A stretch of 64,000 bases of DNA. It comes from Buxus sempervirens. Its lineage: Eukaryota; Streptophyta; Magnoliopsida; Buxales; Buxaceae. Each line of letters begins with the position of its first letter. Positions within the stretch are counted from its first letter, which is position 1. Of this stretch, positions 739 to 62,825 are shown piece after piece. The notes under the pieces were generated by a model. It worked only from the letters and a program-made list of their open reading frames with translations. It had not been told where the DNA came from and made no database searches. The stretch is taken from contig OX387183.1 of assembly GCA_947561395.2 (NCBI GenBank), positions 42,700,901-42,764,900 on the forward strand, written 5' to 3'. Position numbers and translations under genes: made by a program.

Positions 739-802
739 GTATCCGGTCAATCAGGCCGGATACAAACAAGGCCATTCGTATCCGGCATGCTACACCCGAT
801 AC
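739..802 (-). repeat. Two 25-bp TATCCGG dyads at an antisense promoter
   Basis: Two inverted repeats with arms GTATCCGG / CCGGATAC (the second is imperfect, ending CCCGATAC) flank 9-bp centres at 739-763 and 778-802. Their starts are exactly 39 bp apart. On the minus strand they lie immediately upstream of a weak AT-rich TATA-like stretch (725-733) and a leader-like region. The same word with the same spacing occurs in this element's own LTR at 1471-1612. Confidence 0.85.
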
Positions 803-961
803 AAAAGAAAAAAAACAAAAAAAAAAAGAAAAAAGAGAAAAAGAAATGAAAAAAAAGGGAAAAAAAAGAAAAAGAAAAAAAAGGAAAAAAAAAAAGAAAA
901 AAGAAAAAAAAGGGAAAAATGAGAAAAGAAAAAAAAAGAGAAAAAAAAGAACAAAGAGAGA
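803..961 (+). repeat. Purine-rich (A/G) tract
   Basis: About 160 bases are almost entirely A and G on the plus strand, with two or three C interruptions. The overlapping Lys/Arg-rich and Phe-rich ORFs on both strands come from this composition and are not genes. Confidence 0.9.
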
Positions 962-995
962 GAGCAAAAATGGACTGCAAATTCAGCTGTTTTCA

Positions 996-1197
996 CAAAA
1001 ACCCTATTTTGTCTTGAAATCCACTTCATAGCCACGAGAGCTCAGTGGAATTTAGGACAACTTTGGGAAATGTGTTGGTCGAAAAGGAAGATATCCACTC
1101 AATTTTTAACTTGATTTGATAAAAAAATCAATTTTCAAAAATCCTATTTTTGGGCTTAAAATCCGCTTCATAGCCACGAGAGCTCAGTGGAATTTAA
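996..1197 (+). repeat. Duplicated ~60-bp unit near the PPT
   Basis: Two copies (about 996-1055 and 1137-1197) share a CCTATTTT... lead-in followed by CTTCATAGCCACGAGAGCTC and AGTGGAATTTA. A third, diverged version lies in the same relative place in the other LTR-A element at 60656-60690. Its conservation between otherwise diverged copies suggests a constrained 3' internal motif of this family. Confidence 0.75.
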
Positions 1198-1355
1198 GAA
1201 TTCTTGGAGAAATGCCCCCTTAAAGTTAGGGCTTTTTGGCAAATCTTCACCCAAAAATTATTTTTATAAAATTGAATTGAACCAAGCAAATCAAGGTTAA
1301 GGGAGTGCAATTTGGGCTTGTCTAATCTTTGCAGCTCATTGCTTCGCAACTCCCG

Positions 1356-1368
1356 CAAAGATGGGAGT
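1356..1368 (+). other. Polypurine tract of LTR-A copy A1
   Basis: The purine-rich stretch CAAAGATGGGAGT directly precedes the LTR start TGTACACACC. It occupies the position expected of a plus-strand primer site, and the Tat copy has an equivalent at 60865-60879. Confidence 0.7.
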
Positions 1369-1470
1369 TGTACACACCCCAAATTGCACAGCAAAAATGA
1401 TCAATAATCATCAAAAATCACTATCTCCTTTGAAGCCAGCACAGAATTTGAGAAAATGAGTTTTTTCCTT

Positions 1471-1612
1471 GTATCCGGCAACTCAGGCCGGATACAAGTA
1501 GTTTCCTCTGTATCCGATGGAATAGGCCGGATACAAGCAGAGCTCAGTGTATCCGGCACCACAGGCCGGATACCTTAAGGCTCTTGTGTATCCGGCCTGA
1601 TATGCCGGATAC
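1471..1612 (+). repeat. Four 25-bp TATCCGG dyads, exact 39-bp period
   Basis: Dyads start at 1471, 1510, 1549 and 1588. Each has 8-bp arms GTATCCGG / CCGGATAC (the second has one arm mismatch) around a 9-bp centre. Centres and 14-bp spacers differ from unit to unit while the arms hold. The array lies about 170 bp upstream of the TATA box, so it should not be part of a transcript starting in this LTR. This favours a DNA-level site over an RNA hairpin. Confidence 0.95.
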
Positions 1613-1780
1613 ATTAGTTTTGCTCAAAATTAGGGTTTTCCGAGAGATTTCACTTTTTTACCATCATATCCTTCATTAAATGAGGGGAAATCTCGGAAAT
1701 AGCCTTAGGGTTAAGGTTGGTGGGCTATAGACATTATGTTGTGTCTACCATTCTCACCAACCCTAACCCTAGCCTTGGCC

Positions 1781-1789
1781 TATAAATAG
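1781..1789 (+). promoter_or_regulatory. TATA box of LTR-A
   Basis: TATAAATAG follows a C-rich segment. The same sequence is found in the other LTR-A copies at 61459-61467 (plus) and about 36656-36664 (minus), so the U3/R boundary is probably about 30 bp downstream. Confidence 0.8.
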
Positions 1790-3842
1790 AAGGCTCCTCC
1801 TTAAGCAAATGGCCAATAAGTTGGAGATCCAAGAGCTCCAAGAGAAGAGGGAAACTGCTGCCGAAGTGCTTCCAGAATCCAGGTAAGCCTCAAACCTCTC
1901 TTTAATTTCTGTTTTTACATTCCTAGATCTAGATCTCTTCTTCTACCTTTCTGTAGAATAAGGCCTTCTATGTGTGTAAAAACCCTTCCCTGGCTCAAAG
2001 TATCTCAAGACTCCCCCTAGCCGTAAAACGTGAAGGCGGGATCTAGGAGAAACGAGACTGGGGATTGACCCTAGTGCTAGAACCTTATCTTGCATAAGCC
2101 TTTTGAATGATTGAAAACCATTTCATGTTCAAAGTACCCCAAGATTATCTTGAAGAACCGTGTTTAACGGGGAGAGAGAACTAAGGGAAACGATAATGGA
2201 ACGGAACCCTAGATTGTTCTAGATCCCATTTTTTATTAATCTGAATACATGCTATGAGCCTTGTGATTCTTTGAAAACCCTTCTATATTCAAAGTACCCC
2301 AAGATTATCATGAAGAACCGTGTTTAACGGGGAGAGAGAACTAAGGGAAACGATAACGGAACGGAACCCTAGGTTGTTTTAGAACCTTACTTTGATTGAT
2401 ATGAATGCATACTATCTTTGCTACATTGTTGGAATGGTTTTTACACCTACACATACATAGCACATGATTTTGGCGGGATAGGCTCATATTTTGGATTTAT
2501 TACATTCATTGTGATAAATCTAAAATAAATGGCCTCAATCAATTCTGGAATTTATTTGAATGGTTTTTAAAGGATTTTGATTAATCTTGCACGGATCACA
2601 CACTTTTATCACTCTTTGGATTTGGTTTTCTTCAAAAAGGGCTTAACTTGACAGCAACTGTACCCTGACTTCGGACACTCATAACTTCATTGTCAGGATG
2701 AATTTTGGAGTGATTCTAGAACCATGGGAAAGGTGAGGCTGTCTAGTTTATGTCCACCAAATTTCATTAATTTCTATCAAGCAGATTTTTGACACCATTC
2801 TGCCGAAGTTGAGAGGTCATTTCAGGTCAAACTGTTGAACCTATCACTTCGAATGGGTGCCATCTGCTTGTTTTAAATCCGATTCAAGTGATTTTTGTTT
2901 CTGGGAACTCCTTTATGAGTATATTTTTAACTCCAATTGGTTTTATAATTTTTTGATTTAAATTGTGTCATGGAGAGCAGATTTTCTCAGAACTGCTCAA
3001 CAGCACTTTTTCTGGGTCAATCTGTGATCCTCGGGGCCTGTTCGGGAAGTCACCCAAGGCATATCCAAATGAGTTTTTGAATGAGGCTAGTTTCTTTTGA
3101 AAGATGGCCATACAGACTTCATTGACACCAAATTTCATTGATTTTTATGGAGCCGAATTTTCTAGGTGATTTTCCGAACTTGCCTACTTGTTACTTTTGA
3201 TTTTCTCCGGCAGCAACTTTAAAAGAGCCATAACTCTTAGAATTTCAACTGGAATTAATTGAAATTTTGCATGAGACTATTGTTTACCCTAATATTTCAA
3301 ATGAATTTGGTTTGATTTAATTTAAAATTGGATTTGATTGATTTCAAGACAAATGGCATTACTTTTTACCCAATTTCCTGGATTTGCCTCAACTTGGTTT
3401 TGTGCAACTTTTGCTTTGATTTCCATCTTTTTGTGATAGTCCAGAAATGATATTGACATAAAAAGAGGATCTGGAATTCATTTGGATTTTCATGTAAAGA
3501 TATCATACATGTGTCGTTTTTCCAAATTTTAATGATTTTTAGCAAGCTTTCTTATTTCTTAACATGAACAACACTTGGCAACCACCTTATGTGGGTGAAT
3601 GGGGGTGCCTAACACCTTCCCCTGTTCATAATCTAATCCCCTTACCCATCTCTGGATTTGATTTTCAAGTAGGGTTATTTTTTACTCTAGAATTCGTCTT
3701 TTATCTCTTTTTGCTTATTTTTAATCTTTTGGTGTCCATTCACACCTTAAAACTGAATGGTGGCGACTCTCCCACTTTTTATGTTGATCCCGTGTGTTGA
3801 CGGAGGGGAGATCATTCCGGTGATTTTTTCCCATGTCTCACA

Positions 3843-5740: not shown

Positions 5741-5753
5741 AAGACGGAGTGTG

Positions 5754-8092: not shown

Positions 8093-9279
8093 TGTAAGTG
8101 TGAAAACTCACACTCCTTTTATGACAAATGTTTGACAAATTATATCTTCTAATAAATCTTCAAGATGTGCAGATTAAATAATGAAAATTCAGTAAATTTA
8201 GAAAAGAAGAAGAAGATGATGCTGCCACACAGCTACCACGCCGCTGGTAGCCCAATGAAATGAAAGATTTTCTAAACAGAGCATTTTATTGTAAAGGCAC
8301 TTGCGAAGATCAACGCCGCCGCAACCCCGCTGGTAGCGCATAAGTTAATCAGTGCTTTGAAAGAAAGGTACGTGCACTAGCGTCGTAAGGTGACGCCGAC
8401 ACGCTGCTGGTAGCGCAGAGCAAGATTGAAGATTACATGATCAGCCGTGCACATGCCGTGTTCTCTCTCGCTAGCAGCTCGCTGGCAGCGCGCCCTTAAC
8501 TGATTCAACCTGTTCTGAGCGGGATTTGAGTTCGCTTCCAGCCGTCTACCCCGATCGCTTCACGACGCCACCAGCGCTCGACGCGATCTGAGTTTTATTC
8601 TTTAAATAGACGTGCTGTAATTTTTAGTAGCGACTTTTGATCTTTGGATCTTTTTGTTTTCGGATCTTGAGGTGTTTGAGATTCGATCAAATCGTCTTTA
8701 GAGAGTCGGCGATCGAGTGAGGGGGAGATCTGAGATAGATCACCTGGAATTGAAGATAGAGGATTCTTCTTCAATTCGGAACTTCATCTGATCGTGTGAT
8801 CGCCTGGACTGGTGATCGGCTTTGATTGATGTGTAGGTGGATTCCTACTGCATTGGATTGTCTCAGTGGATTCTGAGGTGATTGCTGCGATCTGGATTGA
8901 TCGTGTTCTGCAGCTTGTGGATTCAAGCTGTGTTGCAGTTCGTGGATTCAAACTGAGGATCACTGGTGAGTGATTGTTTGCGATCTGGACTGATCGTGTT
9001 CTGCAGCTTGTGGATTCAAGCTGTGTTGCAGTTCGTGGATTTGAACTGTGAATTGCTATTGAGTGAGTCCAATTGTAAAGGTTAAGTATGTACTCCTTTG
9101 TAATTGTCTTTTCATTCAATAGTGGATTTTCGAAGGGTTAGTCGCCTCATATAGACTCGAGGTTTTTCCTGGATCTGGATCCAGGTGTCCTCGTATAATT
9201 CTCTGTGTATTGTTTCCGCATTGTTAAATTCTGAATTGTTGTAGATCGTGGACCTATAGAGTAGTCCTCTACTCTTACA
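8093..9279 (+). repeat. 5' LTR of copia element
   Basis: Ends are TGTAAGTGTG...CTCTTACA. GCTGGTAGC-type dyads occupy 8232-8490, a TATA-like TTTAAATAG lies at 8601-8609, and a duplicated CTGCAGCTTGTGGATTCAAGC segment lies near 8908 and 9000. The minus-strand ORF 8784-9119 only reads this duplication. Confidence 0.95.
8232..8490 (+). repeat. GCTGGTAGC dyad array in copia 5' LTR
   Basis: The core GCTGGTAGC (or GCTGGCAGC) starts at 8243, 8329, 8405 and 8481. The first forms a clean dyad, GCTACCA / TGGTAGC at 8232-8251; the last is paired with GCTAGCAGC just before it. A related CGCCACCAGCGCTC lies at 8567-8580. The array ends close upstream of the TATA-like box. The same word precedes the third ORF at 18658-18741. 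Confidence 0.8.
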
Positions 9280-9281
9280 AG

Positions 9282-9293
9282 TGGTATCAGAGC
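9282..9293 (+). other. Primer binding site (iMet tRNA) of copia element
   Basis: TGGTATCAGAGC, two bases after the LTR end, is complementary to the 3' end of plant initiator methionine tRNA. Confidence 0.95.
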
Positions 9294-9339
9294 CTATTCA
9301 CTTTGAATTGCTATACAAAGTGTGATCTAGATCTATAGC

Positions 9340-12189
9340 ATGGATTTTGGAAAAGAAGGAGGATCTGCCTCTAGACCTCCATTATTTGAAGGTAACAATT
9401 ATTCTTACTGGAAAGCAAGAATGAGAGCTTACCTGAAATCAATCGATGAGCGTGTTTGGCTCTCGGTTTGTAATGGTTATCATACACCTGAGATCACAAC
9501 AGAAGGAGGTGTTGTGATTCCTAAACCTCATGATCAGTGGACTAAAACTGAATCTGATCAATGTGGATGGAACAACAAGGCAATGAATGCCTTATTTTGT
9601 GCTGTTAGTGTTGAAGAATTTAGAAGAATTTCCTCATGTGAAGTCGCTAAGGAAGCTTGGGACATTCTTGAGGTCACTTATGAAGGAACCTCAGCTGTCA
9701 AGCTGTCAGGACTTCAAAGACTTACTACATCTTCCGAAACTCTATATATGAAAGATGCTGAGTCTTTTGATGAGTTTTATGCTAAACTCTCAGATATTGT
9801 TAATTCTAGTTTTAATCTTGGAGAAAAAATCTCTACATCAAAGGTTATTAGAAAAATCTTAAGATCTTTGCCTGAAAAATTCAGACCTAAAGTAACTGCC
9901 ATTCAAGAGGCAAAAGATGTAGATAACATGAGAATTGAAGATCTGGTAGGATCTTTACAGACTTATGAGCTAGATCTGAATATTCCTAAGAGGAGTAAAG
10001 GAATAGCTGTAAAATCTGTAAATACTGAAGAATCAGATAATTCTGATGTTGATATGGATGAGCTTGTTCTCTTAGCTAAAAAGTTTAAGAGAATGTTTAA
10101 AAAGAGACAATCCAATCCTTCATCATCCATGGACAGATCTAATAGGAGATCTGATAAGAAAATTTCTGATCCAAGAAAAGAGAAGAAATTTTCTCAGAAT
10201 GATGAAGTTCAATGTTACAAATGTAGAGGATTTGGACATGTTGCCTCTGAGTGTCCCTCAAAGGATAAAAAGAAAAAGACTAATTATCAGGTTACTTGGG
10301 ATGACAGTAACACTGATAATTCTTCACACTCTGATGAGGATATTTCTGCTAATTTTACTGCTTTCAATTCTTTTTACTCATCCTCCTCTGGTAGTTCAAT
10401 CTCTGGAATTGCAGGAGATAATAAAGAGACTTTATCAGATGATGAAGAAGAACTACAAGAAGCCTACAATCAGCTCTATAAGGAATTCAATAGAGCTCAG
10501 AAGAAAGTCAAGAAATTGAGTAAAAAATTGAAGGAATCAGAAACAGAGAAAAATAAAGCTCTTGCAGAAATAGATTTAATAAACCAGAAGTTACTTGAAA
10601 AACATGCCAAAGAAAATTCTCTGGTAACTTCTTTAACTGAAAAAACTGAAAAACTAAAAGAAAAGGAAGCTCAGATTTCTGCACTTCAAGGTAAAGTGAT
10701 TGAACTTGAGAAAGTTTCAAATTCAAGTAAATCTAATGCTTCAAATTCTTCTGCAGGAAATTATCAATTTGATGAGGAATCAACTTCAAAGGAAGTTCCT
10801 GAAAGCTCAAATTCTGCTGAAAAGAGAATGAGTGTAAGTAATCAAAACAAGGAATCTTCACAGAAAATTTCTGCTGGAGAAGTAAGACCAACAGGTAAAC
10901 CTTCAACTTCTGAGAAATCTAAATCTGTACAGTTTAGAAATACTGGCAGATCTAGAAATGTTGATTTTTCTGAACATAGGTTCATACCTGTATGTCATCA
11001 CTGCAATAAAAAGGGTCATATAAGACCAAAATGTTATGTATTGCATGGTTTTCCTGAGGGATATTTTGATAATAAGAGAAAAGTAAATCAAAGTAAGTCT
11101 CTAGATTTACATAACAGATTTGATTCTCTGTTAAAATTGACTGAAACATTAAATAAGGAAGTCACAAATCTATCAAAGAAACTTCCTTCAAAAACTCATG
11201 TAGTTGATGAAGGTACTTCTCAGAAAACTCCTGAAAAACAGATTTGGGTAAGAAAAGATTCCTTAGTTGCTAATATGGTTCATGTAGCTTTGAAAGCTCA
11301 TGATGTCAACATGTGGTACTTGGACAGTGGTTGTTCAAGACATATGTATGGACACAGGTCTATGTTTAGTACTTTTGAAGAATACTTTGGTGGAAGTGTT
11401 ACATTTGGTGATGGAAGCACTTCCCAAGTTAAAGGTAAAGGAACTGTAAATGGTCCAAATGGTGTTTGTCTGAAAGATGTATTATTTGTATCTGGTTTGA
11501 AGGCTAAATTGATTAGTATTAGCCAATTATGTGATTCCAGATTGTTTGTCAATTTTACCAGAAAAGAATGTAAAATCTTGAATAATTCTGGTAAAATTGT
11601 TCTTATAGGTGTAAGAACAAATGACAATTGTTATGGAATTATTGGAAACAATGAAAAATCTTTAAAATCTTCTGTATGTGATGAAATTGATTTGTGGCAT
11701 AAAAGACTGGGTCACATTAACTATAGAGATTTGTCAAACATCTCTAAGTCTGAACTGGTTAGAGGAATTCCAAAGTTTGGGAATAATAAAAACAAAGGAA
11801 TGTGTGGACCTTGCAATCAAGGAAAACAAATCAAAGCCACACACAAGAAAACCAACATTGTAGGAACCTCTAGACCATTAGAACTGATTCATATGGACTT
11901 AATGGGACCTACAAAGACTGAAAGTCTGGGAGGAAAGAGGTATATCTTTGTGGCTGTAAATGACTACAGTAGATATACCTGGGTAAATTTTTTAAGAGAA
12001 AAATCTGAATGCTTTGATTGTTTTAAACACTTGTGCTGTCAAATTCAAGTTGAAAAGAACTTGCAAATAAGGAGAATAGTTAGAATAAGATCTGATCATG
12101 GGACAGAATTTGAAAATCAGATGTTTTCCAAATTGTGTGAAGACCAGGGAATTAAACATGAATTTTCTGCTCCTAAGACTCCACAGTAA
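9340..12189 (+). pseudogene. copia gag-protease-integrase (N part), ends at a premature stop
   Basis: This is the first 949 codons of the copia polyprotein. Visible in order are: a UBN2/DUF4219-type gag start (LFEGNNYSYWKARMRAYL, residues 15-32); a CCHC knuckle CYKCRGFGHVASEC (about 292-305); a Lys/Glu-rich coiled-coil stretch (about 365-460); a second knuckle CHHCNKKGHIRPKC (about 552-565); the protease motif LDSGCS (about 661); the pre-integrase HHCC zinc finger (about 785-830); and the integrase core with its first two Asp residues (HMDLMGP and RSDHGTEF). The frame meets TAA at 12187-12189, where this family normally has Gln before NGVVERKN. A single C-to-T change explains the stop. The start ATG follows the PBS by about 45 bases. 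Confidence 0.93.
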
Positions 12190-13788: not shown

Positions 13789-14651
13789 TTTAAGCACCTC
13801 ATTTTTGCGCTCCCAGAAAAAAACCAAAAATACAAACCCTGGACAGAAAGTCAGCCCTAAGGGGTGAAAAGTTGACTTTTTTGATCAAATGAAATTGGCC
13901 ACCTTGCTTTATCTCATTGGATAGAGAATCTCGACACGATTCCAACGCAACTGAGTTTGCAGGAATCGGGGTCCGGATGAAGGTTCTGCGGGCGGTCAAA
14001 CTTAAGGAAAAGCCGAGAGTTGACTTTTCCTCGAATTCCGTGCCAAGTACCTTGCTTTATATCATTGGATAGAGAATCTCGACACGATTCCAACGCAACT
14101 GAGTTTGTAGGAATCGGGGTCCGGATGAAGGTTCTGCGGGTGGTCAAACTTGAGCAGAGCCAAAAGTTGACTTTCTGCTAAAATCCGATCCAGAGGCCTA
14201 CCCCTAGGTCATTGGGTAGAGAATCTCGACACGATTCCAACGCAACTGAGTTTGCAGAAATCGGGGTCCGGATGAAGGTTCTGCGGGTGGTCAAACTTGA
14301 GCAGAGCCAAAAGTTGACTTTCTGATAAAATCCGATCCAGAGGCCTACCCCTAGGTCATGGGATGGAGGGCTCCGATACGATTCTAATGAAACTAAGTTT
14401 GCCCTGATCGGAGTCCGGATGAAGGAAATATGAGCTGACGAAATTCCAGGGCAGCAAAACCGGCAATCTGCGCACGTGGCAAAGAGCTGCACATGTGGCG
14501 AGTTGCGCAGGAAAATATCTCGGGGATTAAATCCGTAAATATCCAAACATACGAAATATCCCAGGGACTAAATCCGTGAAAATCCGAGAATATCGGATTA
14601 AATCAAAAATTTCCAGGGACTAAATCCGAATTTTTTAGATTTTTACGTTCG

Positions 14652-14722: not shown

Positions 14723-14766
14723 CTGGAGCTGGGCGCCAAGGTGGGTGCATGCCCTTTTTTCTCTCT

Positions 14767-18640: not shown

Positions 18641-18641
18641 T

Positions 18642-45055: not shown

Positions 45056-45058
45056 CTT

Positions 45059-49523: not shown

Positions 49524-49634
49524 TTGGCAGTCAGAGGATGATCAAAGGCAGCTACGAAGGGCGAAAATCGAAAAAAGGAGTTTTCTGACCTAAGAAAGAT
49601 GTCACAATGACGTTATGTCCGCAATTCAAGACTT

Positions 49635-51099: not shown

Positions 51100-53731
51100 T
51101 GTTAGCACCTTGGGCGCGCGGAAAAAGCGTGTTACAATCTTTTATGGAGTTGCCACTACCTAAAATGGTGCAGGTAGACACCCATTGACTTTTGGTCTAA
51201 ACCAATGATTCTAGATAAGTGACAATATTACAACCCAAGGAAGTCCTTGAACACCCTAGCTTGCCCCACCGAAATGGGTTCCCTTAAATCAGTTGGATCA
51301 TATTTGGGTTGATTTACTATCATTTAATTTTTTTATCTTTTATCTTTTATATGTTTTTTTTATTTTTTTTATGATCACATGTGTACAAATATTGGAGGAA
51401 TGGGGGTTACTATACTACATCCTATATAAAATATAATACATATGTAAAAGAAAATCCAAAATAAGGAAATCCAAATCAAATATTCCAACATGGAGCAATG
51501 TACTTGGTTTCTTAAAAAAATTAAAAATATATATTTTTTTATATTTTTTTATTTAACCAGCCACATCATTTTATTTTTTATTGCTTTCTTATGCCTTTTT
51601 TTATGATAATTTATTTGTAGAAAGCATGTGTCAAAAAAAAAAAAACTCAATCATATTTTATCATTGAAGATTACACTTTATTTTCCATATTTTTTTTATT
51701 CTTATTTCTAAGAATTTGGAGAAAAGGAGAAGTGTTATAAGAAATTAATTAAAGTTACAAATGTTTAAGCCTATGATCTAAAAAAATAATTAAGAAATTA
51801 AAAATTAAATATATTAGTTAAGCCTATTATCTAAAGAATTAAGAGAAGAATTAAAAAATTCTGGTTCTTATAGTTAATTATGTTGTTATTTGTTTAAAAA
51901 GAAAGAACAAATGAAGGCCTAGGGGTTATTTAAAAAAGGTTTTATGGAAGAGGTAAAACATGAAATAAAATAAGTTCTTTTTAAATCCTTCAACTTTTTA
52001 GAATAACAAATTAGGCACAATAGTTTATCAAATTCTCAAAAATCAACCCCCAAAACCATTCGTTCAACAGATTTTTTTTTTGTCTTGGCTTTCCCCATCT
52101 TCCAATTTCTCCCCTTTATTTCACTCCAACTTCTCTAAATTCCTTTCTAATTCTCAAACACAAGAGAAAAAGAATTAAGAGAGAATTAAAAATTAAAGTT
52201 ACAAATAAAAAATGCGGCCATGGCCATAACAGTAATATGCTTTATTTAACAACACTAACATGAAATAACACATTCGGCCATAACAATAACATGCTTTGTA
52301 TTATTTTCACTTTGACAATTTAACAATACTAAAAAATACTTAATTGAAGAATCAACAAATAAAATAAAATAAAAACCTGGTATGGAGTCGATTTCCCTGA
52401 AACTGGTGAGCACAACTCCGAATGTTTCCCCCCTTTTTCTTGCACAAACTCCTTCCACCTCTTTTTCTCACTTCCCTCTTTGATTTTTTCAAAGAAGTCT
52501 CTTCTTTCCTCCCCCCTCTTTTGCTCCCAACTTCTATCCTTTTTATAGAGAATTCCCACCCCTTCAACTTCTTAACCTCTAACATTTCCTCTTCCTCTCC
52601 TAAACCTCTCCTCTCCCTAACTTCTCATCTTCCTCTCTTAAACATCTAACTCCTCTCCTTGCTCTCTTAAACACCAAAACTCCTAACTCCCCATCTTCCT
52701 CTCTTAAACACCTAAACTCCTAACTCTTCCTCTTCTTCTCTTTAAACACCTAAACCCCTAACTTTTCCTCTTCTTCTTTTTAAACACCATCATTTATTTA
52801 GGTTTGGTCAAAGTCTATTTTGTCCCATATTTTTTAAGTTTAGTCTTAATATCTCAAGAGAACATGAGTTGGACCAATTCGTCCAACTCATTTCTCTTTG
52901 TTTATATTTTTTTATTTTCTTTTAATCTCAAAACTTTTATTAAATTTTTTATTTATTTGCATAACAAACTGTGACATCCTGGCTGTCTGGGCAGGTGAAT
53001 GGGTAATCTCCCTAGGCAAGCTACTAGGTGAGGATGTGCATATGGTTGGGACCCCACAACGCTCGGGGATGCTATAAGTAGTCTTAAGACTCCCTGTGTG
53101 CGCCTGACTTCGGTGTGTCGCACTGGGTAAAATGAGAATTTGGAGTCGCCACGGCCTGATGGCATGCAGGCGGACACCTGGGAGCCTAGATTTTCTATTA
53201 GACTTGGTCTGCGGCTTGAGATTCTAAGTAAGTTCTCGGTTACGGTCCGGGGAAGTCCGTAGACACCCCGGTCCGCCCCGTCAAGTGACGGGTCCCATAG
53301 GTTTCCCTGGTTTGAGTCAACTTTGGTCTCTCACTCACCCGATTCCTAATCCAACATGCTCATTTGGTTAAGTCTGGCGGGACCGCCAAAGTGGTGTGGG
53401 TCCCTTTACTTGATTTTATCCTTTTAGTTAAAGATGAGATGAGTCTGATTGGGTGGACCCCGTTGGAGGGCCCACGGTATCCCTTGGTGGGCCAAGTGTG
53501 GCCCACATGTTCCTTGGTGGGCCAAGTGTGGCCTTTTGGACTTTAGTTCAATTTGATTTTATTTTATTTTGGAGTTCAAGTTGGGTTATTACGTGACTTC
53601 CATGCAAAGTGGGCCGGATTGCTTTGTGGGCCCCTGAGTGGGCCACACATGGTAGCCAAGTGACTTATTGGTTTTAACTTTATTAAGTTTCACAAAGGGG
53701 CCAGGCCTTGGGCTTGGGGCCCTTTACCTGG

Positions 53732-56700
53732 TGTGCACACCCGATTTCGGTCGCACGATGAGGCGCACGCAAAATGATGCGTGCCTCGAGATTTGTTTGG
53801 AGTCGCCACTGCCTGATGGGGTTTAGGCAGACACCTGGGTGCCTAAGTTCTTCTACTAAGGCTTGATCTGTTGCTTAAGATTCTAAGTAGGTTCTCGGTT
53901 GCGGTCTGGGGAAGTCCGTAGACACTCCAGTCCACCCCGTCAAGTGACGGGTCCCATAAGTTTCCCTGGTTTGAGTCAACTTAGTTGGTCTCTCACTCAC
54001 CCGATGCCTAATCCAGCATTCAATTTTGGTTAAGTCTGGCGGGACCGCCAAAGTGGTGTGGGTCCCTTTACTTGATTTTATCTTCTTATTATTGAATGAA
54101 GTGAGTCTGATTGGGTGGGCCCCGTTGGAAGGCCCACGGATCCCTTGGTGGGCTTGGTTGAGCCCACGTGTCCCTTGGTGGGCCTCAGTCTAGCCTGAGA
54201 GGCCCTTTGGGCTTTGGTTCAAATGAATTGATTTTACTTTAAGGTTTAAGTTGGATTATTTAAATGGATTTCATGCCAAAAGTGGGCCGGGACTTTTTGT
54301 GGGCCCTTGACTGGGCCATACAGTCGGTTGCCAAGTGATTTTTGATTTATCTTTCTTATCTGTGCCAAAATAGGCCAAGCATTGGGCTTGGGGCCCTTTA
54401 CCTGGGCTCGGGCTTGAAAGCCCAAGACTTTCTGAGATAGGGTTTGGAAACCCTGCACTTGTTTGGTTTAATGGGCTTAGTGGGCCCGACAGGCCCTACC
54501 CGTGGTCTCGGCCAAACCACAACCTACTTTAAGCATGCATGGCCCAAATAGGCCTTGGGTGGGCCTCAAGTGGTCTAGCCCACTCAAATGGGTTGATTTT
54601 ATCTTTATTTAAAAAAAGGAGTTTGTCGGGCTTGGTGGGCCCCGTTGGAAGACCCACCGGGAATCAATTTGGACCGGGTGTCCAAGGCCCATCTTGGGTC
54701 TCCGGTTGACCCGAAAACCCTTCTGGTTCGCCCATATTTGATCAAACACACCAAAAAATCACACAAGATCAGCAAAAATGGCAAAAAATGAATTCTGGCA
54801 GTGTAGCCGGCCTGAGATGCCGGCTACGCACACAGGACAGTGTATCCAGCATTCTTCGCCGGTTACAAACGGATCTCTGTTGATCCGGCCTGAGTTGCCG
54901 GATCAACATACATAATCCATTTTTTTGGATTTTTCCAATGGGGTTGGTTTCTTGGGTTCTTAGGGTGTCTCAGTAGTTGCGTGGGCCCCTATGGGGGCCC
55001 ACAATGGTCCAGATGAAGCCATTTGGCTTTTCTTTTGGGGTTTTCAAAATCAAAACAGCAAGGGGATGGGTGGGGGTTCCCTTTCTCCTCTCTCTTGCAA
55101 GGGACAGTACTTGAACAGGGATCAAGCATCCCTGTTTCGGTCTTTGGCTTTTGGAAAAATGAGCAAACATGCGTGCACATAGGAGGACATCAAACCAAGA
55201 TAAAACACATGTTTCAAAGCATGGTTGGATTATACGAGAAAGTGGGCCACCTAAGAGCAAAAAAAATCTTGTTTTCATCGCATGCATACTTCACCCAAAC
55301 AGTGACCTACTCATATCAACTAAGCATGCTTCTAGCAAATGAAAATCCATGCAAGCACATAGGGATGCACAAGCAAAGGCGTTGGCTCCTCATGATCACA
55401 AAACAATGATAAAAAAATGATAGAAACCTACATGAGAACATGTGAAAATAGTTGCAAAATGAGGCAATTTTATAACCCTACAAATCATGGCACGTATGCT
55501 TGAAATTCTAAAGAACAATCAAGAGGGTATTATGCATTCACATGATAACGACTAGGCATGCATAAGACAGCAACTAGACTATGTATGACCAAACATAAGA
55601 CATAAACTCCAGCATGCGTCTCATGATCTTTACCATGACAATATCAATCTAGATCATGCTCTTGTTCTAAGAGAAGACTCACATAAAGAAGGGAATAGAA
55701 GGGGGGGTTACTTTAGGGATACATTAGATGGCACACATGAATGGAACATGCTCCACTCTTTGAAGAATAGACCTCCATGACGAAAGCCAAAACAGTAGCC
55801 GAATGGTGGTTGCAAGGTCTCTCTAACCCACCAAACTACTCCCTAGCCTCTCTTTATTCTACCGGCATCTTACCTTTCTTGCCATGTGGGGCTGACCGTC
55901 CATCAAATGAGCATGAGAATGTGACAACAACAACATCAAGAGGACATGCACATGGGGAACAAAATGGGAGAGGATGGCATGCTTGAAATGGTAAGAAACA
56001 CATGGTCAAAACACATGCTCATATGGAGCTCATTTTCATATATCATGAACAAAAGGCCATAGGGAACATCACCTTGGGGTTTTTGAACCCTTGAGTGGAG
56101 TGGTAGCACCTCCTTTTGGGCTGGAGCAGCACTTCAAGCTCTTCTTCTCCTAGCACCAAGGAGCTTCAAGTATGTTTCTTGGGTTGAGAACCAAGGGTGA
56201 AAAGGGTAGGAGGCCTTGAGATCAATTTTGGTGAGTTTTGGGGTGAGTGGAGGTGACAAAATGGAGGTGCACAAGAGGGTGCAGCCATGGGAGAGCTTGG
56301 GAGAGATGGGAGAAACTGAGAGAGGTGGGAGAGATCTCCCAAAAAAAATCAATCGACCATGAGCAAGGGTGCTAGGGTTTCTTTTTATAATCCATGACCA
56401 AAAGGCAATTACTTTTCACTTTTATGACCAAAACCTTTCCCCTTTTCCATCCATGCCCTTTTTTAAACATATGCAATGATGGTTTCAAGACTTAGCCTCC
56501 AAGTAAACTTGGAGGCCAAGTCTTGCTTGGACTGTGGAGAATTCGTCCAACCACATATATTTTTTATTTTCTTTTTTTTCTTATGTACCTTTATTATTAT
56601 TATATTAAGATTTTTTGTTTCAAGTTTTGGATGCACATGCATCTTTTAATTTTTTTCCTTTTCTTTTATTTTAAATACTTTAATTAGATTTTTAGCAAAA

Positions 56701-57298
56701 AATATTATTTTTTAATTCAAAACTTTTCATTTTGCTGCTCTTTCTTCACTGTTTGCCACGTGTGCAGATTTTCAGAAACTTCAACTGCTCACAACTCACT
56801 TGTCTGATATCCAATTTTAGCAAACTTAGTGGCATTGGAATCAGTACGAGATTACCTATCTACTGAATTTCAGTTTAGTAGCAAATTCGAGTTTTTTAGC
56901 AGAAGTGCTGGGCCGCGTCCGGGAGCCGATTTTGCTCATATTTCCTTATCCGGGACTCCGATTCCAGCAAACTCAGTTGCGTTGGAATCGTGTTGAGATG
57001 CTCTTTCTGCTGGTATCAAATGAGGTAGCGGATTTGGGGTTTAGCAGAGAGTCCATTTCTGCTTTTCTCAGATTTGACCAGTCCATAACTACTTCATCTG
57101 GACTCCGATTTGAGCAAACTCTATTCCATTAGAATCGTATCGGAATCCTCTTTCCAATGGTGGGAAGCATGGCAACTGATTTGCACCAGATAAAAAGTCA
57201 ACTTTTTGACTTTCTCAAGTTTGACTTTCACAAGTTTGACTTTTCAAATAAAATTTCATTTTCTACATTTTGGGAGACGCGAAAATGAGGTACTTACA
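53732..57298 (-). mobile_element. LTR-B copy B3b (inner, reverse strand) inside B3
   Basis: This 3567-bp copy has a perfect CCTGG duplication (53727-53731 and 57299-57303). It is the same family inserted into itself in the same orientation. It has a dyad cluster at 54803-54906 and two GGGCCCCGTTGGAAG motifs (54118 and 54640). The ORFs inside do not resemble any protein I know. Confidence 0.93.
54803..54906 (-). repeat. Dyads with covarying arms in B3b
   Basis: Three dyads occur: GTAGCCGG / CCGGCTAC (54803-54827), an imperfect GTATCCAGC / GCCGGTTAC (54843-54867), and TTGATCCGG / CCGGATCAA (54880-54906). Steps are about 40 and 38. The changed arms match each other, and the centres (CCTGAGATG and CCTGAGTTG) are close to those in LTR-A. 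Confidence 0.9.
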
Positions 57299-59435
57299 CC
57301 TGGGCTTGGGCTTGAAAGCCCAAGACTTACTGAGTTATGGTTAGAAACCCTAATTTTATTTAGTGAGTGGGCTTGGTGGGCCCGACAGGCCCCGCCCTTG
57401 GTCTCGGCCAAACCACAACATAATTTCAGCATGCAAGCCCCACATAGGGCTTGGGTGGGCCTCAAGTGGTCTGGCCCGCCCAGTTCCTTTGATTATCTTA
57501 TTTAAGCACAATTTAGTGGTTCGGGCTGGGTGGGCCCCGTTGGAAGGCCCACTGGGAATCAAGTTAGACCAGGTCGTCTGAGTCCCATGTTGGGTTTCCG
57601 GGTCACCTGGAAACCCTATTGGCACACTTGGTTCGGTTTGAGAATGTTACCCACAGTCAGCAAAGATTACAGAATATGCAGAAATCATGCAATACAGAAA
57701 ATATACAAAAATCACATAATCTGGGTCCAAGGGGAGGGACCTCGGGCCCCTGTGGGCCAACAGGGTTGGGGGGTGCGGGTGGCGAAGCCCCCAGCGGTAC
57801 GGTACAAGGGTATTTTCGGATTTTTAAAAATATAAGCAACTCGGCCTTAAAAGGGGTATGCGCTGACCTCCGGGCGCTAGGCGCGAGGTCAGCGGATCGA
57901 AACAACCAAAAAAAAGGCATCCGCGCATGAGCTTCGCACGAGCTCTACGGATGCAAAAAGTGCTCCGCACGAGCTTCGCGCGAGCTCGGCGGATGCAAAG
58001 GTGCTCCGCGCGAGCTTCGGGCGAGATTAGCGCATACCCCTGGTTCTCTGTTTTTCTCTCAAACTCAATGTCTGGCTTGATTTTCAGGCCCTGTAACCAC
58101 TTTCTGGTGTTTCTACAACTCCCATAAGGCATTTAAACATGCATCGAAGTTAATCTAACCTAGATCATCATCCAAATCAAAATCTCTTGGCAAAAATCCA
58201 ATCCCAAAAACAACAAAGACCGGACTGACGAAGGGAACAGGGGGCTTATATCGGGGTACAACAGATGGAGAAATCATAGGGGAACATGCTCCCCCTTCGA
58301 ATCAAACAAGTAATATCAGTGAAGAACAAAATGCTAGAAAACAAAACATCGCAATGAACTTATTTATTTTGGACAAGAGGTCGTCGGGAACATTACCTGG
58401 GTTTTAATCTTTTGCAGGGTGTGCGTGAGGCTTCCTGGGAGTGCACGAACAGTTGCTGGAGCCTCCTCCTTCGAGCATCAAGAGCATTTCGCCTTCGAGC
58501 ATCAAGAGGTGAGGATGGGAAGAAGGATCCGAGGAAGGTGGAGAAGAAGTGTGTCTGGTTTTTTTATGGGAAGATGGTGGTCAAGACCACCTGTGCCCGA
58601 CGAAGAAGAAGCCAACGAAAAAGAAAACCCCAATGAGGAAGAAAGCCAAACTCCAAACCGCCAACCAAAAAATGCCAAACCCCTTGCAATGAAGGTTGTC
58701 GCGGCTTTTATAGAAGAAGACATGGGGGTATCCGCCGAGCTGGCACCATTTGGTGCTGAGTACCTGTCGCTCGGCGCAAGCGACACAATTATTGCAAAAC
58801 AATTAATCCGGCCGCGGTTTTGTTTAAAAATCCGAAAATTAAGATATAGTCCCTGGGATATTTGGGTTTAATATTATTTTATTCAGATATTTTCAGATTG
58901 GTCCCTGGGATCTTTTGAATGTTTGGATATTCATGGATTTGATCCCCGAGATATTTTCCTGCGCAACTCGCCACGTGTGCCGCTCTCTGCCACGTGCGCA
59001 GTTTGCCGGTTTTGCTGCTCGGAAACTTTGTCAGCTCATATCTTCTTCATCCGGGCTCCGATTTGGGCAAACTCAGTTGCGTTAGAACCGTATCGGAGCC
59101 CTCTATCCAATGGAATGGGGGTAAGCACTTGGATCAGGGTTTAGCAGAAGGTCAACTTTCGGTTCCCCCTCAAGTTTGACCGCCCGCAGAACCTTTATCC
59201 GGACTCCGATTCCAACAAACTCAGTTGCGTTGGAACCGTGTCGGGATTCTATATCCAATGAGATAAAGCGAGGTAGCCAATTATCACTTGATCAAAAAGT
59301 CAATTTTCATCCCCTCAGGGTTTGACTTTCTGCCAGGGTTTTTATTTTTAGCACTTCCAGGGGTGCAAAAATAAGGTGCTTACACCCCCAACTAAGCAAA
59401 AGGCCTTTTAAGGAACAACACGGGACTAAATCCCT

Positions 59436-59513
59436 TTGGAACCCTAAAGTTAAGCGTGCTCGGGTGAGAGCATTGCTAGGATGGGTGACCACTGGAAAGT
59501 TTTCTCGTGTTAT
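59436..59513 (+). other. 5S rRNA-derived segment in Cassandra-like LTR
   Basis: AAGTTAAGCGTGCTCGGG (A-box region, about 59447-59464) and CTAGGATGGGTGACC (C-box, 59476-59490) match the 3' two thirds of plant 5S rRNA, followed by a diverged GGAAAGTTTTCTCGTGTT. It is truncated and mutated, so it is not a 5S gene. Confidence 0.85.
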
Positions 59514-59628
59514 CCTTGAGAACAAATCCGTGAGGGTCCGTGGGCCCAGAGCGGACAATATCTTGCTGAGTCCTTGAGAACAAATCTGTGAGGGTCCGTG
59601 GGCCCAGAGCAGACAATATCTTGCTGGG
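59513..59628 (+). repeat. 58-bp tandem duplication in Cassandra-like LTR
   Basis: Two near-identical units, 59513-59570 and 59571-59628, each run from TCCTTGAGAACAAATC to the AATATCTTGCTG end and differ at a few sites. Slippage within the LTR is the likely cause. Confidence 0.92.
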
Positions 59629-60429
59629 TACGGGTCTGGGGCGTTACAAACCCATTAGGAAATTTATGTTATTTACTAAAAAAACCCCAAAATTTTTAAT
59701 TTATCATTGGTCACATGGCAGCCACCATGTTGTACACGTGGCTGCCATGTGGCATCCAATTTCGGTTTTATAAAAATCCCCAAACTACCCTTTACTTCTT
59801 TTATCCATAACTTAGTCTTTTGAGATCCGATTTGAGCAGGGTTTGGTGAATTGGAATCGTCTCAGAATTCTCTTTATTATGGGCTTATTATTTCAAAAAG
59901 ACGAGTCCACTATAAAAACCTCGATTTACATGCCAACATATATGCTGGTTTAAAATATGCTTCTTGGCAATTTTATGGTGCAAAAATGGGGTGCTGACAA
60001 AGATATCAGCACTCGGATTAAGTGTTCACAAAGGAAAAGTAGTGTTCGGTCACTTACCTGTCTAGGTTGTAAGAAGGGATTGTTGCAAGAAAAATTGAAG
60101 CTTTGTCTCACCAGAGAATCCTAGGCAATTCGCCCACGAGGAGAAGTAGTCCAATGTTGAAGGGTGTCTTGAATGAAATCCCAAATATCAAGGAGAGGTG
60201 CTGTCATGGCAGTGAAGTGAAAAAGGGGCTCGACTCAAGGCTAGCCAGAGGGATCCCACTACAGTCAAAGAGTAACCGCCGGAGAGTTTTGCCATCGCCG
60301 GAGGATAAGAAGGTCACCAGAGAAGAGAAAACGAAGGCCGGAGAGAAGATGCGGTCGGAGGAGAGATTGGCAAGTGTAGAGGTCGAGGGTAAACACAGGT
60401 GAAATGGAGAAAGAATGGTCGTCTTTGCA

Positions 60430-60515
60430 TTTTTAAAGGCCCTAGAAAACCACATAGTCAATGCGTTTCTGGGTCAACCGCAACTCAAATGCAGTTGACG
60501 CAAAACCGCAGCGTA
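60430..60515 (-). promoter_or_regulatory. Distal antisense promoter candidate of Tat element
   Basis: On the minus strand, AACCGCA dyads (60515-60476, including GACCGCACA / TGCGGTTT and CAACTGCATTTGAGTTG) precede CTTTAAAAATG (TATA-like, about 60430-60438) and a leader that ends at a consensus donor CAG/GTAAGTGA (60059/60058). The layout parallels copy A1 at 720-802. Confidence 0.55.
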
Positions 60516-60864
60516 TGTGCGGTCAGCACCCAAAAAATGATTTTCAAAAAGATTTTTTCCATCTCTATCAAGAGATTTATGTTCAGATTAATTGTGGATT
60601 GTAAGGATCACCATTCTACCAACTTTTCTTTTTTTTTAAAAATTTGCTCAAGTCTCACTTCATAGCCACGAGTGCTCTGTGAAACGCAAGAAGAGGATTT
60701 GCCCCTTAAAGATAGGGGCTTTTCAGCAAATCCTCTAAACAAATTCTTTTTCCAAAAAAATCATCCTTTGAAATCCTTGCAAGTTATAACTAATTTGACA
60801 TAATCTCAAAAAGTGCAATTTGCGAGTCTTCTTGCTCTCCGCTGTCAATTGGTTCCAATTCCAA

Positions 60865-60879
60865 CGAAGAGGAGGCAGT
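60865..60879 (+). other. Polypurine tract of Tat element A3
   Basis: CGAAGAGGAGGCAGT lies immediately before the LTR start TGTAGACACCCC. Confidence 0.8.
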
Positions 60880-62825
60880 TGTAGACACCCCAAATTGTAC
60901 TACAAAATGAGGAGCAATAAAAATGAATTTTAAATGATTTGTTTGAGCTTTGACAAATGTCAAAAACTCAAAAATATTCAGAAAAGGTGCTGACCACACA
61001 TATCATGCGGTTTTTGGTCATTTTGTTTCAACCACATACTATGTGTGGTTGCGACCGCACATGCAGTGCGGTTGCGATTCATGCTTCTCGCGTGCGCGCA
61101 AGTGGGCTGCCATGTGGCCGTGGCCGTTAGGCCACGTCGACAACAATCATTGGCGTGTAACTGATTTTTGACTGCGCTGAATATGCGGTTTCTGAGGATT
61201 TGTGTTGCAACCGTAGACAAAGGGCGGTTTACTCTAAACCGCACTGTGTATGCAGTCGCGCTCATTTTGGTCATTTGCGAGAAGGCTCGAGATCTAAGCC
61301 TTATTTATGCATATTACCTCTCTCTGGGAGACTTGATCTCCCTATTTTACCCTCCGAAACTTATAGAATTACATCAATTCATGCCTTTAATTTGAATTGG
61401 AGTAATCTAGAAGCATTTGTTGGCCTACCCTGGGGTCTTTTATACCCTTGGCTATGCCTATAAATAGAGGGGTCCTCCTCTTGCAAATGGCTGTTAATTT
61501 GAAGCTTGAAGGCTCTAGAAGAAGAAGTGAAGCTCTGCCGAATTGCTGTCTCAGCTCTCCCAAGCTACTAAGGTAAGACTACTTCCTTCTCTTCTTAATT
61601 TTTCTTACATTCTAGCACTCTCTCCTTCTACCTTTCTGTAGTGTAAGAATCCTTTCTAGCCATAAAATGTGAAGAGAGAGCTTGGGGAAAAGGAAGTTGG
61701 AATGGAACCTTAGGCTTAGAACCATCTTATGATGAAGCATTTGCATATTCTTGATTTTGTGTAAGGTAGTTGTTTTCTAGAATGATGTTATTGTGGATCT
61801 AGAGAAAACACTAGGAACTATGGTCTATAGCATTATGTCTTTGTTTTCTCCTAAAATTCTGATTTCCACCATGAACACACACATCTCACTTGCTTTTGTC
61901 AAAGATAGGCTTAGATCTAGGATTCACCATGCTCAATATGGCAAATCTGATATCAAGGGCATTAGAGTGAACTCTTAGGACTTCATGAGAGTATTCTAGT
62001 GATTTCAAGCCAGTTTAGTCGAATCCAATGCACACATGCACTGGTTTTGCTCATTTTGACTCAAGGTTTTCAAATCTGGATAGCATCTGTTCCATGTTTT
62101 AGAACACTCATAACTTCATCATCCGGATGAATTTTGGCGTGATTCTAAAGACATGTGATAGATCAATGTGTCTTGTATGTGTCTGTAAAATTTCAACAAT
62201 TTCTATGAAGCCATTTTTTGATACCATCTGATCAAAGTCGACAGGTTAGTTCAGATCAGATTACTAAACTTGTCACTTTGATCGAGCACCATTTGCTCAT
62301 TTTAACTCCGATTTAAGTAATTTTAATCTTTGTGTTTTCCTTGTTGAGTCTAGTTTCAAATCCAACTGATTTCAAGAGCTTTTACTTTGATTTGTGTCTT
62401 TTGTGTTTGATTGACTTAGAGATGCTCAGTAGCAGAGTTTAGAGTCAATCTGTGATCCTCTAGGCATATTCAAGAGGTCACACAAGTCACAGATGGATGG
62501 AGTTTTGTGAGAGGCCTAATTCATTTGAAAGATGGCATACATAATTCATTCATGCAAGTTTTTAAGGATTTATATGGAGCCAATCTCCACGAATAGAGTT
62601 TCAAAGTTGGTTACTCACCACTTTTGCAGATTTACAACAGTAGATTTGATTGAGTGTTTCTCCCTCATTTTTAATCGGATTGATTTGAATTTTATACTGA
62701 GTGTTCTACTTCATATCAGCTGTCTAATGGCTTTGGTTTCGTTCAATTTGAGTTTAAATCGAAGGATTTAGGGTTGATCAAAATTTCCAAGCTAATATAG
62801 TTTCATCTCTTTTGGATTTTTCTAG
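60880..62825 (+). mobile_element. 3' LTR of Tat element A3 (LTR-A family), cut by LTR-B
   Basis: It starts TGTAGACACCCC. Dyads of the AACCGCA type (60991-61073, with more diverged copies to about 61260) replace the TATCCGG words of the other LTR-A copies. The TATA box TATAAATAG lies at 61459-61467, and the donor-like CTAAG/GTAAGAC at about 61572. The downstream body is colinear with A1. The end is off the window beyond the LTR-B insertion. Confidence 0.85.
60991..61073 (+). repeat. AACCGCA / TGCGGTT dyads in the A3 LTR
   Basis: 23-bp dyads start at 60991, 61029 and 61052. The third has perfect arms ACCGCAC / GTGCGGT; the second has CAACCACA / TGTGGTTG. They lie upstream of the TATA box in the place where other LTR-A copies carry TATCCGG dyads. 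Confidence 0.85.

What the first reader, a model, noticed from the sequence alone, without database searches (positions are those of the whole stretch)
739..61073. Each element's LTR and its extra-gene promoter carry the same private inverted-repeat word
Seen: four elements pair an LTR word with the same word at a second, internal site. LTR-A copy A1: TATCCGG at 1471-1612 and 739-802. Tat A3: AACCGCA at 60991-61073, 49654-49773 and 60476-60515. LTR-D: GAGCGC..AGGACCGC at 38481-38519, 33176-33226 and 33590. Copia: GCTGGTAGC at 8232-8490 and 18658-18741. The internal site is always at the promoter or leader of an extra, non-gag-pol gene, and TATA-like boxes follow most arrays. Known: VANDAL DNA transposons encode VANC anti-silencing proteins that act on short motifs repeated in the element, and conserved palindromes have been reported in Sirevirus LTRs. 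Inference: the extra protein (or a host factor) may bind the word and co-regulate LTR and extra gene. I know of no description of this pairing.
Basis: partly seen in the sequence, partly recalled or inferred. Interest (0 to 1): 0.92.

Follow-up and report, generated by a model that had tools for sequence, protein, structure and literature searches.

The report
One DNA switch, three transposon promoters
A family of plant jumping genes carries the same short mirror-image DNA word, at fixed spacing, in front of its main promoter and near the starts of two extra backward-reading genes, and a sister family has changed that word at the matching places, which suggests that the elements run their own gene-control circuit.

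Summary
In a Tat/Ogre-like Ty3 element (A1), dyads TGTATCCGG-N9-CCGGATACA (39-bp pitch) lie in the LTR and at an internal site; a third array lies just left of the window, 46 bp from antisense plant-mobile-domain (PMD)-type gene 1, as two other copies predicted. Sister element A3 carries AACCGCA dyads at the corresponding places. In 12 elements where gene-1 promoter and LTR were both read, words agree (3 TATCCGG, 9 AACCGCA, 0 mixed; seven linked by distance only). Integrase pieces are 84-92% identical across the swap, gene-1 pieces 59-79%. Of 20,703 genome sites GTATCCGG-N(0-30)-CCGGATAC, 20,444 have spacer 9. Half-sites are conserved and mismatches show no G.U preference: DNA-level recognition. 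The D pair is good, copia weaker. 'Private' is too strong: the dissimilar T LTRs share A1's word. The pairing is not undescribed: Bousios 2010 reported it for copia Sireviruses. New, as far as searched: Ty3 elements, antisense genes, joint swap. Most likely an element-encoded protein (candidate: PMD) binds the operators; binding is untested, the swap is in effect one event, and A3's gene 2 was not recognised.

The parts
1369..3842 (+). LTR-A1, 3' LTR of a Tat/Ogre-like element whose internal region lies to the left
   Evidence: TGTACACACCCC start preceded by a purine-rich tract, TGTCTCACA end; 86.7% match to A2 over 829 bp
1470..1613 (.). LTR-A1 operator array: 4 TATCCGG dyads, pitch 39
   Evidence: TATAAA 168 bp downstream
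738..803 (.). A1 internal operator array (site II), upstream of antisense gene 2 (first recognised piece starts at L027:5021, about 1.7 kb away): 2 dyads, pitch 39
   Evidence: TATA-like box 7 bp downstream in antisense direction
34757..37547 (-). LTR-A2, solo LTR inserted in the D 3' LTR, TSD CCTCT
36831..36974 (.). LTR-A2 operator array: 4 TATCCGG dyads, pitch 39
   Evidence: half-sites conserved against A1 (3/72 against 22/72 changes)
43952..46612 (+). Tat A3 pol pieces: RT and RNase H (43952-45055), integrase (46091-46348, 46418-46612)
   Evidence: Pfam; identity to the A1-family integrase
48794..49541 (-). Tat A3 antisense gene 1 (DUF7745, PMD-related), in pieces
   Evidence: Pfam; 59-79% identical to A1-family gene 1 by pieces
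49655..49772 (.). A3 operator array at the gene-1 promoter (site I): 4 AACCGCA-type dyads, half-site step 14 in the first two
   Evidence: TATA-like box 8 bp downstream
60448..60524 (.). A3 operator array site II: 3 AACCGCA-type dyads, half-site step 14; no gene recognised downstream
   Evidence: TATA-like box 11 bp downstream
60880..62825 (+). LTR-A3 (3' LTR), cut by a T LTR at 62826
60992..61257 (.). LTR-A3 operator array: 5 AACCGCA-type dyads
51100..59999 (-). M LTR (TSD ATCTT) inserted between A3 sites I and II, itself holding T-type material
26405..30719 (-). T solo LTR (TSD CCTAT) in the D 5' LTR; carries TATCCGG dyads 29784-29992
63555..63802 (.). TATCCGG array (5 dyads) in the T LTR that starts at 62826; TATAAA 11 bp downstream
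34477..40095 (+). LTR-D, 3' LTR (contains A2); the matching part of the 5' LTR is 25516-31050
   Evidence: repeated part; start read from its ends
38481..38519 (.). LTR-D operator: GAGCGCCTAG-GACCGCCTAG ... GCGCTC, 10-bp step
31468..32929 (-). D antisense gene, PF20167 (Transposase_32), in two frames; only gene recognised in a 3.4-kb internal region
33177..33225 (.). D gene-promoter operator: GAGCGCTCAG-GACCGCTCAG-GATCGCTCAG ... GCGCTC, 10-bp step
8093..22022 (+). Sirevirus-like Ty1/copia element (LTRs 98% identical, TSD TTTCT) with a T solo LTR inserted at about 13791
8232..8489 (.). Copia LTR word sites (GCTGGTAGC and variants)
18658..18740 (.). Copia word variants upstream of the env-like gene, TATAAA 14 bp downstream
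18969..20348 (+). Copia env-like gene with PF20167 domain (two in-frame stops)

Best explanation
Each of these Tat/Ogre-like Ty3 elements is a small regulon. One operator, a dyad of two inverted half-sites at fixed spacing, is repeated in an array in front of the element's promoters: the LTR promoter (gag-pol), antisense gene 1 and, in the A1 family, antisense gene 2. A dimeric, sequence-specific DNA-binding protein reads it. The likeliest reader is encoded by the element itself, by a PMD-type antisense gene, which so controls its own promoter and the LTR, activating them or keeping them from being silenced. When the protein's specificity drifts, all operators of that family change together, as between the TATCCGG and AACCGCA families. 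Shown: arrays, geometry, promoter positions, conservation of half-sites, concordance in 12 elements, two PMD-type genes in the A1 family. Inferred: that a protein binds, that it is the PMD protein, and the direction of its effect. The copia and D elements use the same layout with a different kind of extra gene (PF20167).
For: One word at three sites in A1, L007 and L008 and, with another word, in A3, L028 and six more elements read at site I and at site II plus LTR (L046/L064, L049/L067, L050/L068, L055/L069, L051/L072, L041/L073); L047/L065 was read at site I and LTR. 12 of 12 with site I and LTR agree (tally from these calls). Prediction met: A1's gene-1 array lies just left of the window, 46 bp from the start of a gene-1 match 89% identical to L008's. 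27 of 28 A3-like gene-1 upstream stretches carry AACCGCA arrays (7 of 8; 20 of 20; weakest L043, two dyads with 3 mismatches of 14). Spacer exactly 9 in 20,444 of 20,703 sites; reversed controls 0 and 2. Pitch 39 in 14 of 16 neighbours in the window. A1/A2 half-sites against spacers and linkers: 3/72 and 22/72 changes, Fisher 3.7e-5; entropy 0.24 against 1.02 and 1.32 bits in 22 arrays. GU 44, AC 52 at half-site pairs. TATA-like box within 14 bp of 4 of 5 internal arrays, background 2.6%. Gene-1 pieces 59-79% identical across the swap, integrase pieces 84 and 92%. L008 gene 1 and L007 gene 2 match PMD above Pfam's cut-off.
Against: No binding data. No DNA-binding fold was shown: the model of the PF20167 piece was useless (pLDDT 36) and PDB sequence searches gave nothing significant; PMD proteins were not modelled. 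T LTRs share A1's word, which also fits a shared host factor. In the T2/T4 pair half-sites are not significantly better conserved (6/72 against 25/137, P 0.066). The swap is effectively one event, so 12 of 12 is not 12 independent tests, and in 7 of the 12 the LTR was tied to gene 1 by distance only. A3 and L028 show no gene-2 match, so their site II has no known gene. L035 lacks the array. The D LTR has only a weak TATA-like match (226 bp away) and T2 none with the motif list used. PMD is not an established DNA-binding domain (recalled). Copia and D use another gene family, so 'PMD reads it' cannot be the general rule.
Confidence: 0.5

Rival explanations
1. Host transcription factors bind the dyads; the element merely uses the same host site at each promoter, and families switched to different host factors.
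For: T LTRs, which do not align to A outside the dyads apart from short end motifs, share the TATCCGG word and the 39-bp pitch. Bousios 2010 found mainly stress-related host sites among Sirevirus motifs.
Against: Switching at three sites together, with dyad symmetry kept but half-sites changed, needs several coordinated changes; words differ between families in one genome.
Confidence: 0.27
2. The dyads act as RNA or single-strand hairpins (siRNA source, reverse transcription or packaging), as proposed for maize Sirevirus palindromes (recalled, not read).
For: Perfect inverted repeats; symmetric covariation at the first inner pair (17 of 22 paired, 9.9 expected; 90 of 145 against 62.1).
Against: Spacer 9 in 98.7% of genome sites and fixed 39-bp inter-dyad pitch are not needed by hairpins; no G.U preference (44 GU, 52 AC).
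Confidence: 0.06
3. By-product of array turnover: tandem duplication and gene conversion spread one word through an element without function.
For: Arrays with fixed pitch are what duplication makes; linkers and spacers turn over fast; the genome copies are related by descent.
Against: Half-sites are conserved while linkers between them are not; internal arrays lie just upstream of TATA-like boxes and of separate antisense genes.
Confidence: 0.1
4. Chance or reader selection: short words matched by eye.
For: Copia and D pairs alone would be modest (tied first ranks).
Against: Shuffle expectations 0.01, 0.49 and 0; genome counts of 20,444 with reversed control 0 and of 968/965 for the D word (<=1 mismatch) with control 0.
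Confidence: 0.01

Closest known systems
Sirevirus repeated motifs (RM), Bousios et al. 2010, PMC2829016 (sections 9 and 10 and search passages read)
   Same: Element-specific palindromic motif repeated in LTRs upstream of the TATA box and again upstream of the extra (ENV) gene; no linker copies in the RM-bearing elements without ENV. The Citrus motif AATCCGGCTWRCCGGATT resembles A1's word.
   Different: Ty1/copia only, reported there as Sirevirus-specific (compared with other Ty1/copia); sense ENV gene; consensus spacers shorter than 9; in what I read no swap between sister families and no trans-factor.
VANDAL / VANC anti-silencing, Hosaka et al. 2017, PMC5735166 (passages read)
   Same: Short family-specific motifs in non-coding DNA that diverge between related elements; there an element-encoded protein binds them.
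   Different: DNA transposons; tandem motifs ('palindrom' occurs 0 times); binding and demethylation shown there, not here. That VANC is unrelated to PMD is recalled, not tested.
Retand antisense TRP28 genes, Vicient 2025, PMC11963269 (abstract, discussion and passages read)
   Same: Ty3 elements with antisense genes between pol and the 3' LTR, predicted DNA-binding, regulatory role proposed; family-specific tandem repeats.
   Different: TRP28, not PMD; no operator or LTR motif described in what I read ('palindrom' occurs only in a reference).
Ogre elements with plant mobile domain ORFs, Neumann et al. 2019, PMC6317226 (one passage read)
   Same: PMD in 57% of Ogre elements; the A1 family carries two PMD-type genes.
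   Different: That passage describes no promoters or operators.
PF20167 in an Athila extra ORF of sunflower, PMC11728184 (passages read)
   Same: The domain of the D and copia extra genes occurs in an extra ORF of another Ty3 lineage.
   Different: No LTR or promoter motif in the passages read.

Membership tests
Sirevirus RM system (Bousios 2010) | Ty1/copia pol with extra env-like gene after pol | tested here: met
   Copia element only; the A3 and A1-family elements have Ty3-type RT or integrase, D has no recognised pol
Sirevirus RM system (Bousios 2010) | Palindromic motif with CGG-CCG core | tested here: not met
   The window's copia word is GCTGGTAGC; 12 of the 13 published motifs have the core, Tnd-1 does not
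Sirevirus RM system (Bousios 2010) | Motif clusters in the LTR and upstream of the extra gene | tested here: met
   Copia: 6 matches of GCTRGNAGC per LTR and 3 at the internal site, weak by k-mers; strong for A1, A3 and D, which are not copia
Sirevirus RM system (Bousios 2010) | Multiple PPTs and integrase signal next to the 3' LTR | not tested
   -
Tat/Ogre-type Ty3 retrotransposons | Ty3 RT/RNase H and integrase, antisense extra ORFs between pol and 3' LTR | tested here: met
Tat/Ogre-type Ty3 retrotransposons | RT phylogeny inside Tat/Ogre | not tested
   Lineage name rests on PMD genes, layout and long LTRs
VANDAL/VANC | MULE transposase and VANC homologue | tested here: not met
   No such Pfam match in the ORF pieces scanned; the elements are LTR retrotransposons by TSD and LTR ends
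VANDAL/VANC | Element protein binds the repeated motif and removes silencing | not testable with these tools
   Needs DAP-seq/ChIP and bisulfite sequencing

The most novel reading that the evidence does not exclude
The PMD-type antisense proteins of Tat/Ogre elements are sequence-specific, self-targeting operator-binding anti-silencing factors, LTR-retrotransposon counterparts of VANC reached by convergence. Protein and operators co-evolve, so that sister families in one genome are insulated from each other, while the T LTR family exploits A1's factor in trans.
Probability: 0.33. Interest if true: 0.92.

Novelty: new variant of a known kind. Interest (0 to 1): 0.76.

Why it matters
What the extra, often antisense genes of giant plant retrotransposons do is an open question. 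A shared operator at the promoters of an element, swapped as a set between sister families, gives a concrete, directly testable answer: these genes may run a control circuit of their own. With about 20,000 exact operator dyads in this genome, it could also matter for how much of the genome is silenced or opened.

Tried and rejected
RNA hairpin as main function: rejected on fixed spacer, fixed pitch and lack of G.U preference. Chance: rejected. Blind array finder: 18 clusters against a mean of 1.7 in shuffles, but several are minisatellites or tandem repeats, and its threshold missed the sites at 738 (two dyads), A3 site II and LTR, D and copia. Homologues of the D protein piece: none in the protein database or viral contigs; A3 RT and the A1 dyad gave none in viral contigs. 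Structure of the PF20167 piece: useless model. PDB by sequence: nothing significant. D word against the best 150 PF20167 genes: by eye, on contig C1 only, no listed site lies near a listed gene, so the D pair was not extended genome-wide. First guesses of LTR position missed in 8 of 10 stretches and 3 of 8 (L071 held a T-like array instead). Rows left out of the 12-element tally because site I or the LTR was not in hand: L017 (site II and LTR, both TATCCGG), L029-L033, L034 (second array not assigned), L035 (no array at the promoter), L036-L040, L042-L045, L048, L052-L054; the other loci (L009-L016, L018-L026) hold solo LTRs, T LTRs or mixtures that I did not resolve into elements. Loci were chosen for TATCCGG, so only their other sites count as evidence. 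The TATA-like motif list was chosen after seeing the sequences. PF20167 stretches and the AACCGCA genome counts were not obtained (131, 133, 136, 138).

Full report
WHAT THE WINDOW IS. A 64-kb stretch of nested LTR retrotransposons, G000:C3:42700901-42764900, in a 676.5-Mb genome without a name. Boundaries come from self-comparison, LTR ends and target-site duplications. The Ty1/copia element 8093-22022 (LTRs 98% identical, TSD TTTCT) carries a T-family solo LTR (TSD GTACT). LTR-A copies: A1 1369-3842 (3' LTR, purine tract before it), A2 34757-37547 (solo, minus strand, TSD CCTCT) and A3 from 60880 (3' LTR). D has a 3' LTR read from its ends as 34477-40095 (holding A2) and part of a 5' LTR, 25516-31050 (holding a T solo LTR, TSD CCTAT). 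An M LTR (51100-59999, TSD ATCTT) splits the A3 internal region.

THE OBSERVATION. The TATCCGG dyad has 21 copies in the window against 0.01 expected, the AACCGCA dyad 13 against 0.49, the D 20-mer 3 against 0. Copia is looser: 19 matches of GCTRGNAGC against 1.85 expected, 12 in the two LTRs, 3 at the internal site, 4 elsewhere. A k-mer matrix of LTR arrays against internal sites is diagonal. In a blind ranking of windows outside the word-bearing LTRs, the internal sites of A1 and A3 come first outright; those of D and copia tie for first with an unrelated window.

Half-site spacing is fixed and shared by LTR and internal site. TATCCGG dyads have a 9-bp spacer and 39-bp pitch (14 of 16 neighbouring pairs, the other two 104), also at the internal site 738/777. 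A3 half-sites (<=1 mismatch) step by 14 in 8 of 10 intervals of the two internal arrays and 4 of 9 in the LTR. D repeats step by 10; copia pairs step by 11. Genome-wide, 20,444 of 20,703 sites GTATCCGG-N(0-30)-CCGGATAC have spacer 9; reversed controls 0 and 2.

DNA, NOT RNA. Between A1 and A2 the half-sites differ at 3 of 72 positions, spacers and linkers at 22 of 72 (Fisher 3.7e-5), the LTR around them at 35 of 306. The T4/T2 pair shows the same tendency without significance (6/72, 25/137, P 0.066). In 22 distinct four-dyad arrays the mean entropy is 0.24 bits at half-sites, 1.02 at spacers, 1.32 at linkers. At half-site pairs of 145 distinct dyads there are 44 G.U-type and 52 A.C-type mismatches: no wobble preference. 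The first inner pair covaries (P 0.0002; 90 against 62.1 expected), the next three do not, so the symmetry extends by one base.

THREE SITES, ONE WORD. L007 and L008 are 3' parts of two elements of about 20 kb of the A1 family, picked from dyad places 20.1 kb apart. In order they hold integrase, antisense gene 1 (DUF7745/PMD), a 4-dyad array with TATAAA just downstream in the antisense direction, antisense gene 2 (PMD), a 2-dyad array, and the LTR with 4 dyads. This predicted a third array for the window's A1, just outside the window; one search found it at L027:2238-2381 (window -3762 to -3619), four dyads at pitch 39. L027 also holds gene 1 (89% identical to L008's over 263 aa, starting at 2192, 46 bp from the array) and gene 2 (pieces 59-87% identical to L007's; first piece starts at 5021, about 1.7 kb from site II). 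Of the 50 distinct dyad places listed (start of contig C1), 38 form five triples with the same layout, 20.1-20.7 kb between LTR arrays and 4.7-5.7 kb from the inner array to the 3' LTR; two of the five (L007, L008) were read as sequence, the rest are judged by position. The other 12 places include solo LTRs and unassigned sites.

THE SWAP. A3, whose LTR is 64-71% alike to A1's in the aligned pieces, carries AACCGCA arrays at the gene-1 promoter, at a site before the LTR and in the LTR. Its gene 1 is DUF7745 type; a gene 2 was not recognised in A3 or L028, so for them 'three promoters' is two promoters and one further TATA-associated array. A3's gene 1 has 4,661 candidates in the genome, 150 scored. 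Of 8 upstream stretches of 3.1-3.2 kb, 7 have AACCGCA arrays within about 330 bp; L035 does not. Of 20 stretches of about 600 bp from gene-1 copies 75-79% identical, 20 do, L043 weakly; chance rate at that threshold is 2 per 63 kb. LTRs were reached in L028, in 2 of 10 stretches and 5 of 8 stretches, and all eight carry AACCGCA. In the 12 elements with both gene-1 promoter and LTR read, words agree: 3 TATCCGG, 9 AACCGCA, 0 mixed (exact P 0.0045 if independent). In five of the 12 gene and LTR lie in read, contiguous sequence; in seven the LTR stretch is tied to the gene by distance only. They are not independent: two related groups, so in effect one joint change. Across it integrase pieces are 84% and 92% identical, gene-1 pieces 59-79%.

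HOW IT PROBABLY WORKS. Arrays of rigid dyads just upstream of TATA-like boxes (4 of 5 internal arrays in the window within 14 bp, 53 bp in D; background 2.6%) look like operators for a dimeric protein binding in array. LTR arrays lie 11 to 202 bp from a TATA-like box in A1, A2, A3, T4 and copia; D has only a weak match at 226 bp and T2 none with this list. An element-encoded reader explains best why the sites of an element change together, and a PMD-type gene is the natural candidate: it changes faster than integrase and stands under the operator itself. Whether it activates transcription or removes silencing is open. The T LTR family shares A1's word and pitch but aligns to A only at the dyads, apart from short end motifs, which suggests exploitation in trans or a common host factor. 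D and copia have the same layout with a PF20167 gene; their proteins are related, one antisense in a short element in which no gag-pol was recognised, one sense in a copia element. So the layout goes with at least two kinds of extra gene.

PRIOR ART. Bousios et al. 2010 (PMC2829016; sections 9 and 10 and passages read) described the pairing for Sireviruses: palindromic element-specific motifs in LTRs upstream of the TATA box and upstream of ENV (77 of 79 linker copies), none in the linkers of the four RM-bearing elements without ENV. VANC (PMC5735166, passages; PMC10398659, abstract) is the closest working parallel. Reviews and surveys seen in passages report antisense genes with their own promoters in maize Grande and antisense promoters in other elements (PMC7264820), a DNA-binding prediction for Retand TRP28 (PMC11963269), PMD in 57% of Ogre elements (PMC6317226) and PF20167 in a sunflower Athila ORF (PMC11728184).

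VERDICT.

Noticed in passing
31051-34476: D has only a 3.4-kb internal region in which the one recognised gene is an antisense PF20167 gene: apparently a non-autonomous element that kept the accessory gene and no recognised gag-pol.
   Followed up: partly
23686-23757: Another LTR (ending 25515, before the D 5' LTR part) carries its own inverted word TTGGCGC/GCGCCAA at 21-bp steps, with TATAAA boxes 131-158 bp downstream; its internal region is not in the window.
   Followed up: no
13914-14425, 30232-30595, 62954-63315: T LTRs contain a tandem repeat with unit about 148 bp near their start; T LTRs in L009, L010, L011, L015 and L025 hold two TATCCGG arrays each.
   Followed up: partly
9331-20348: The copia element has 98% identical LTRs, yet at least one in-frame stop in gag-pol and two in the env-like gene.
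   Followed up: no
37015-37095: A2 carries an inverted-repeat (MITE-like) insert near its start that A1 lacks.
   Followed up: no
4870-6240: Minisatellite with unit around GGAGCAAGGCGTCTCC, itself a short inverted word; no element assigned.
   Followed up: no
whole genome: PF20167 genes: 2,050 candidates; most of the 150 scored have open frames of about 270-560 aa without stops, so the gene family looks young or kept intact.
   Followed up: no
L064:170-268, L067:669-767, L068:675-773, L069:561-659, L072:673-771, L073:440-538: In these AACCGCA elements the site-II dyads are 39 bp apart, the same pitch as in the TATCCGG family, while in the window's A3 and L028 they are 28 apart: pitch may be inherited independently of the word.
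   Followed up: partly
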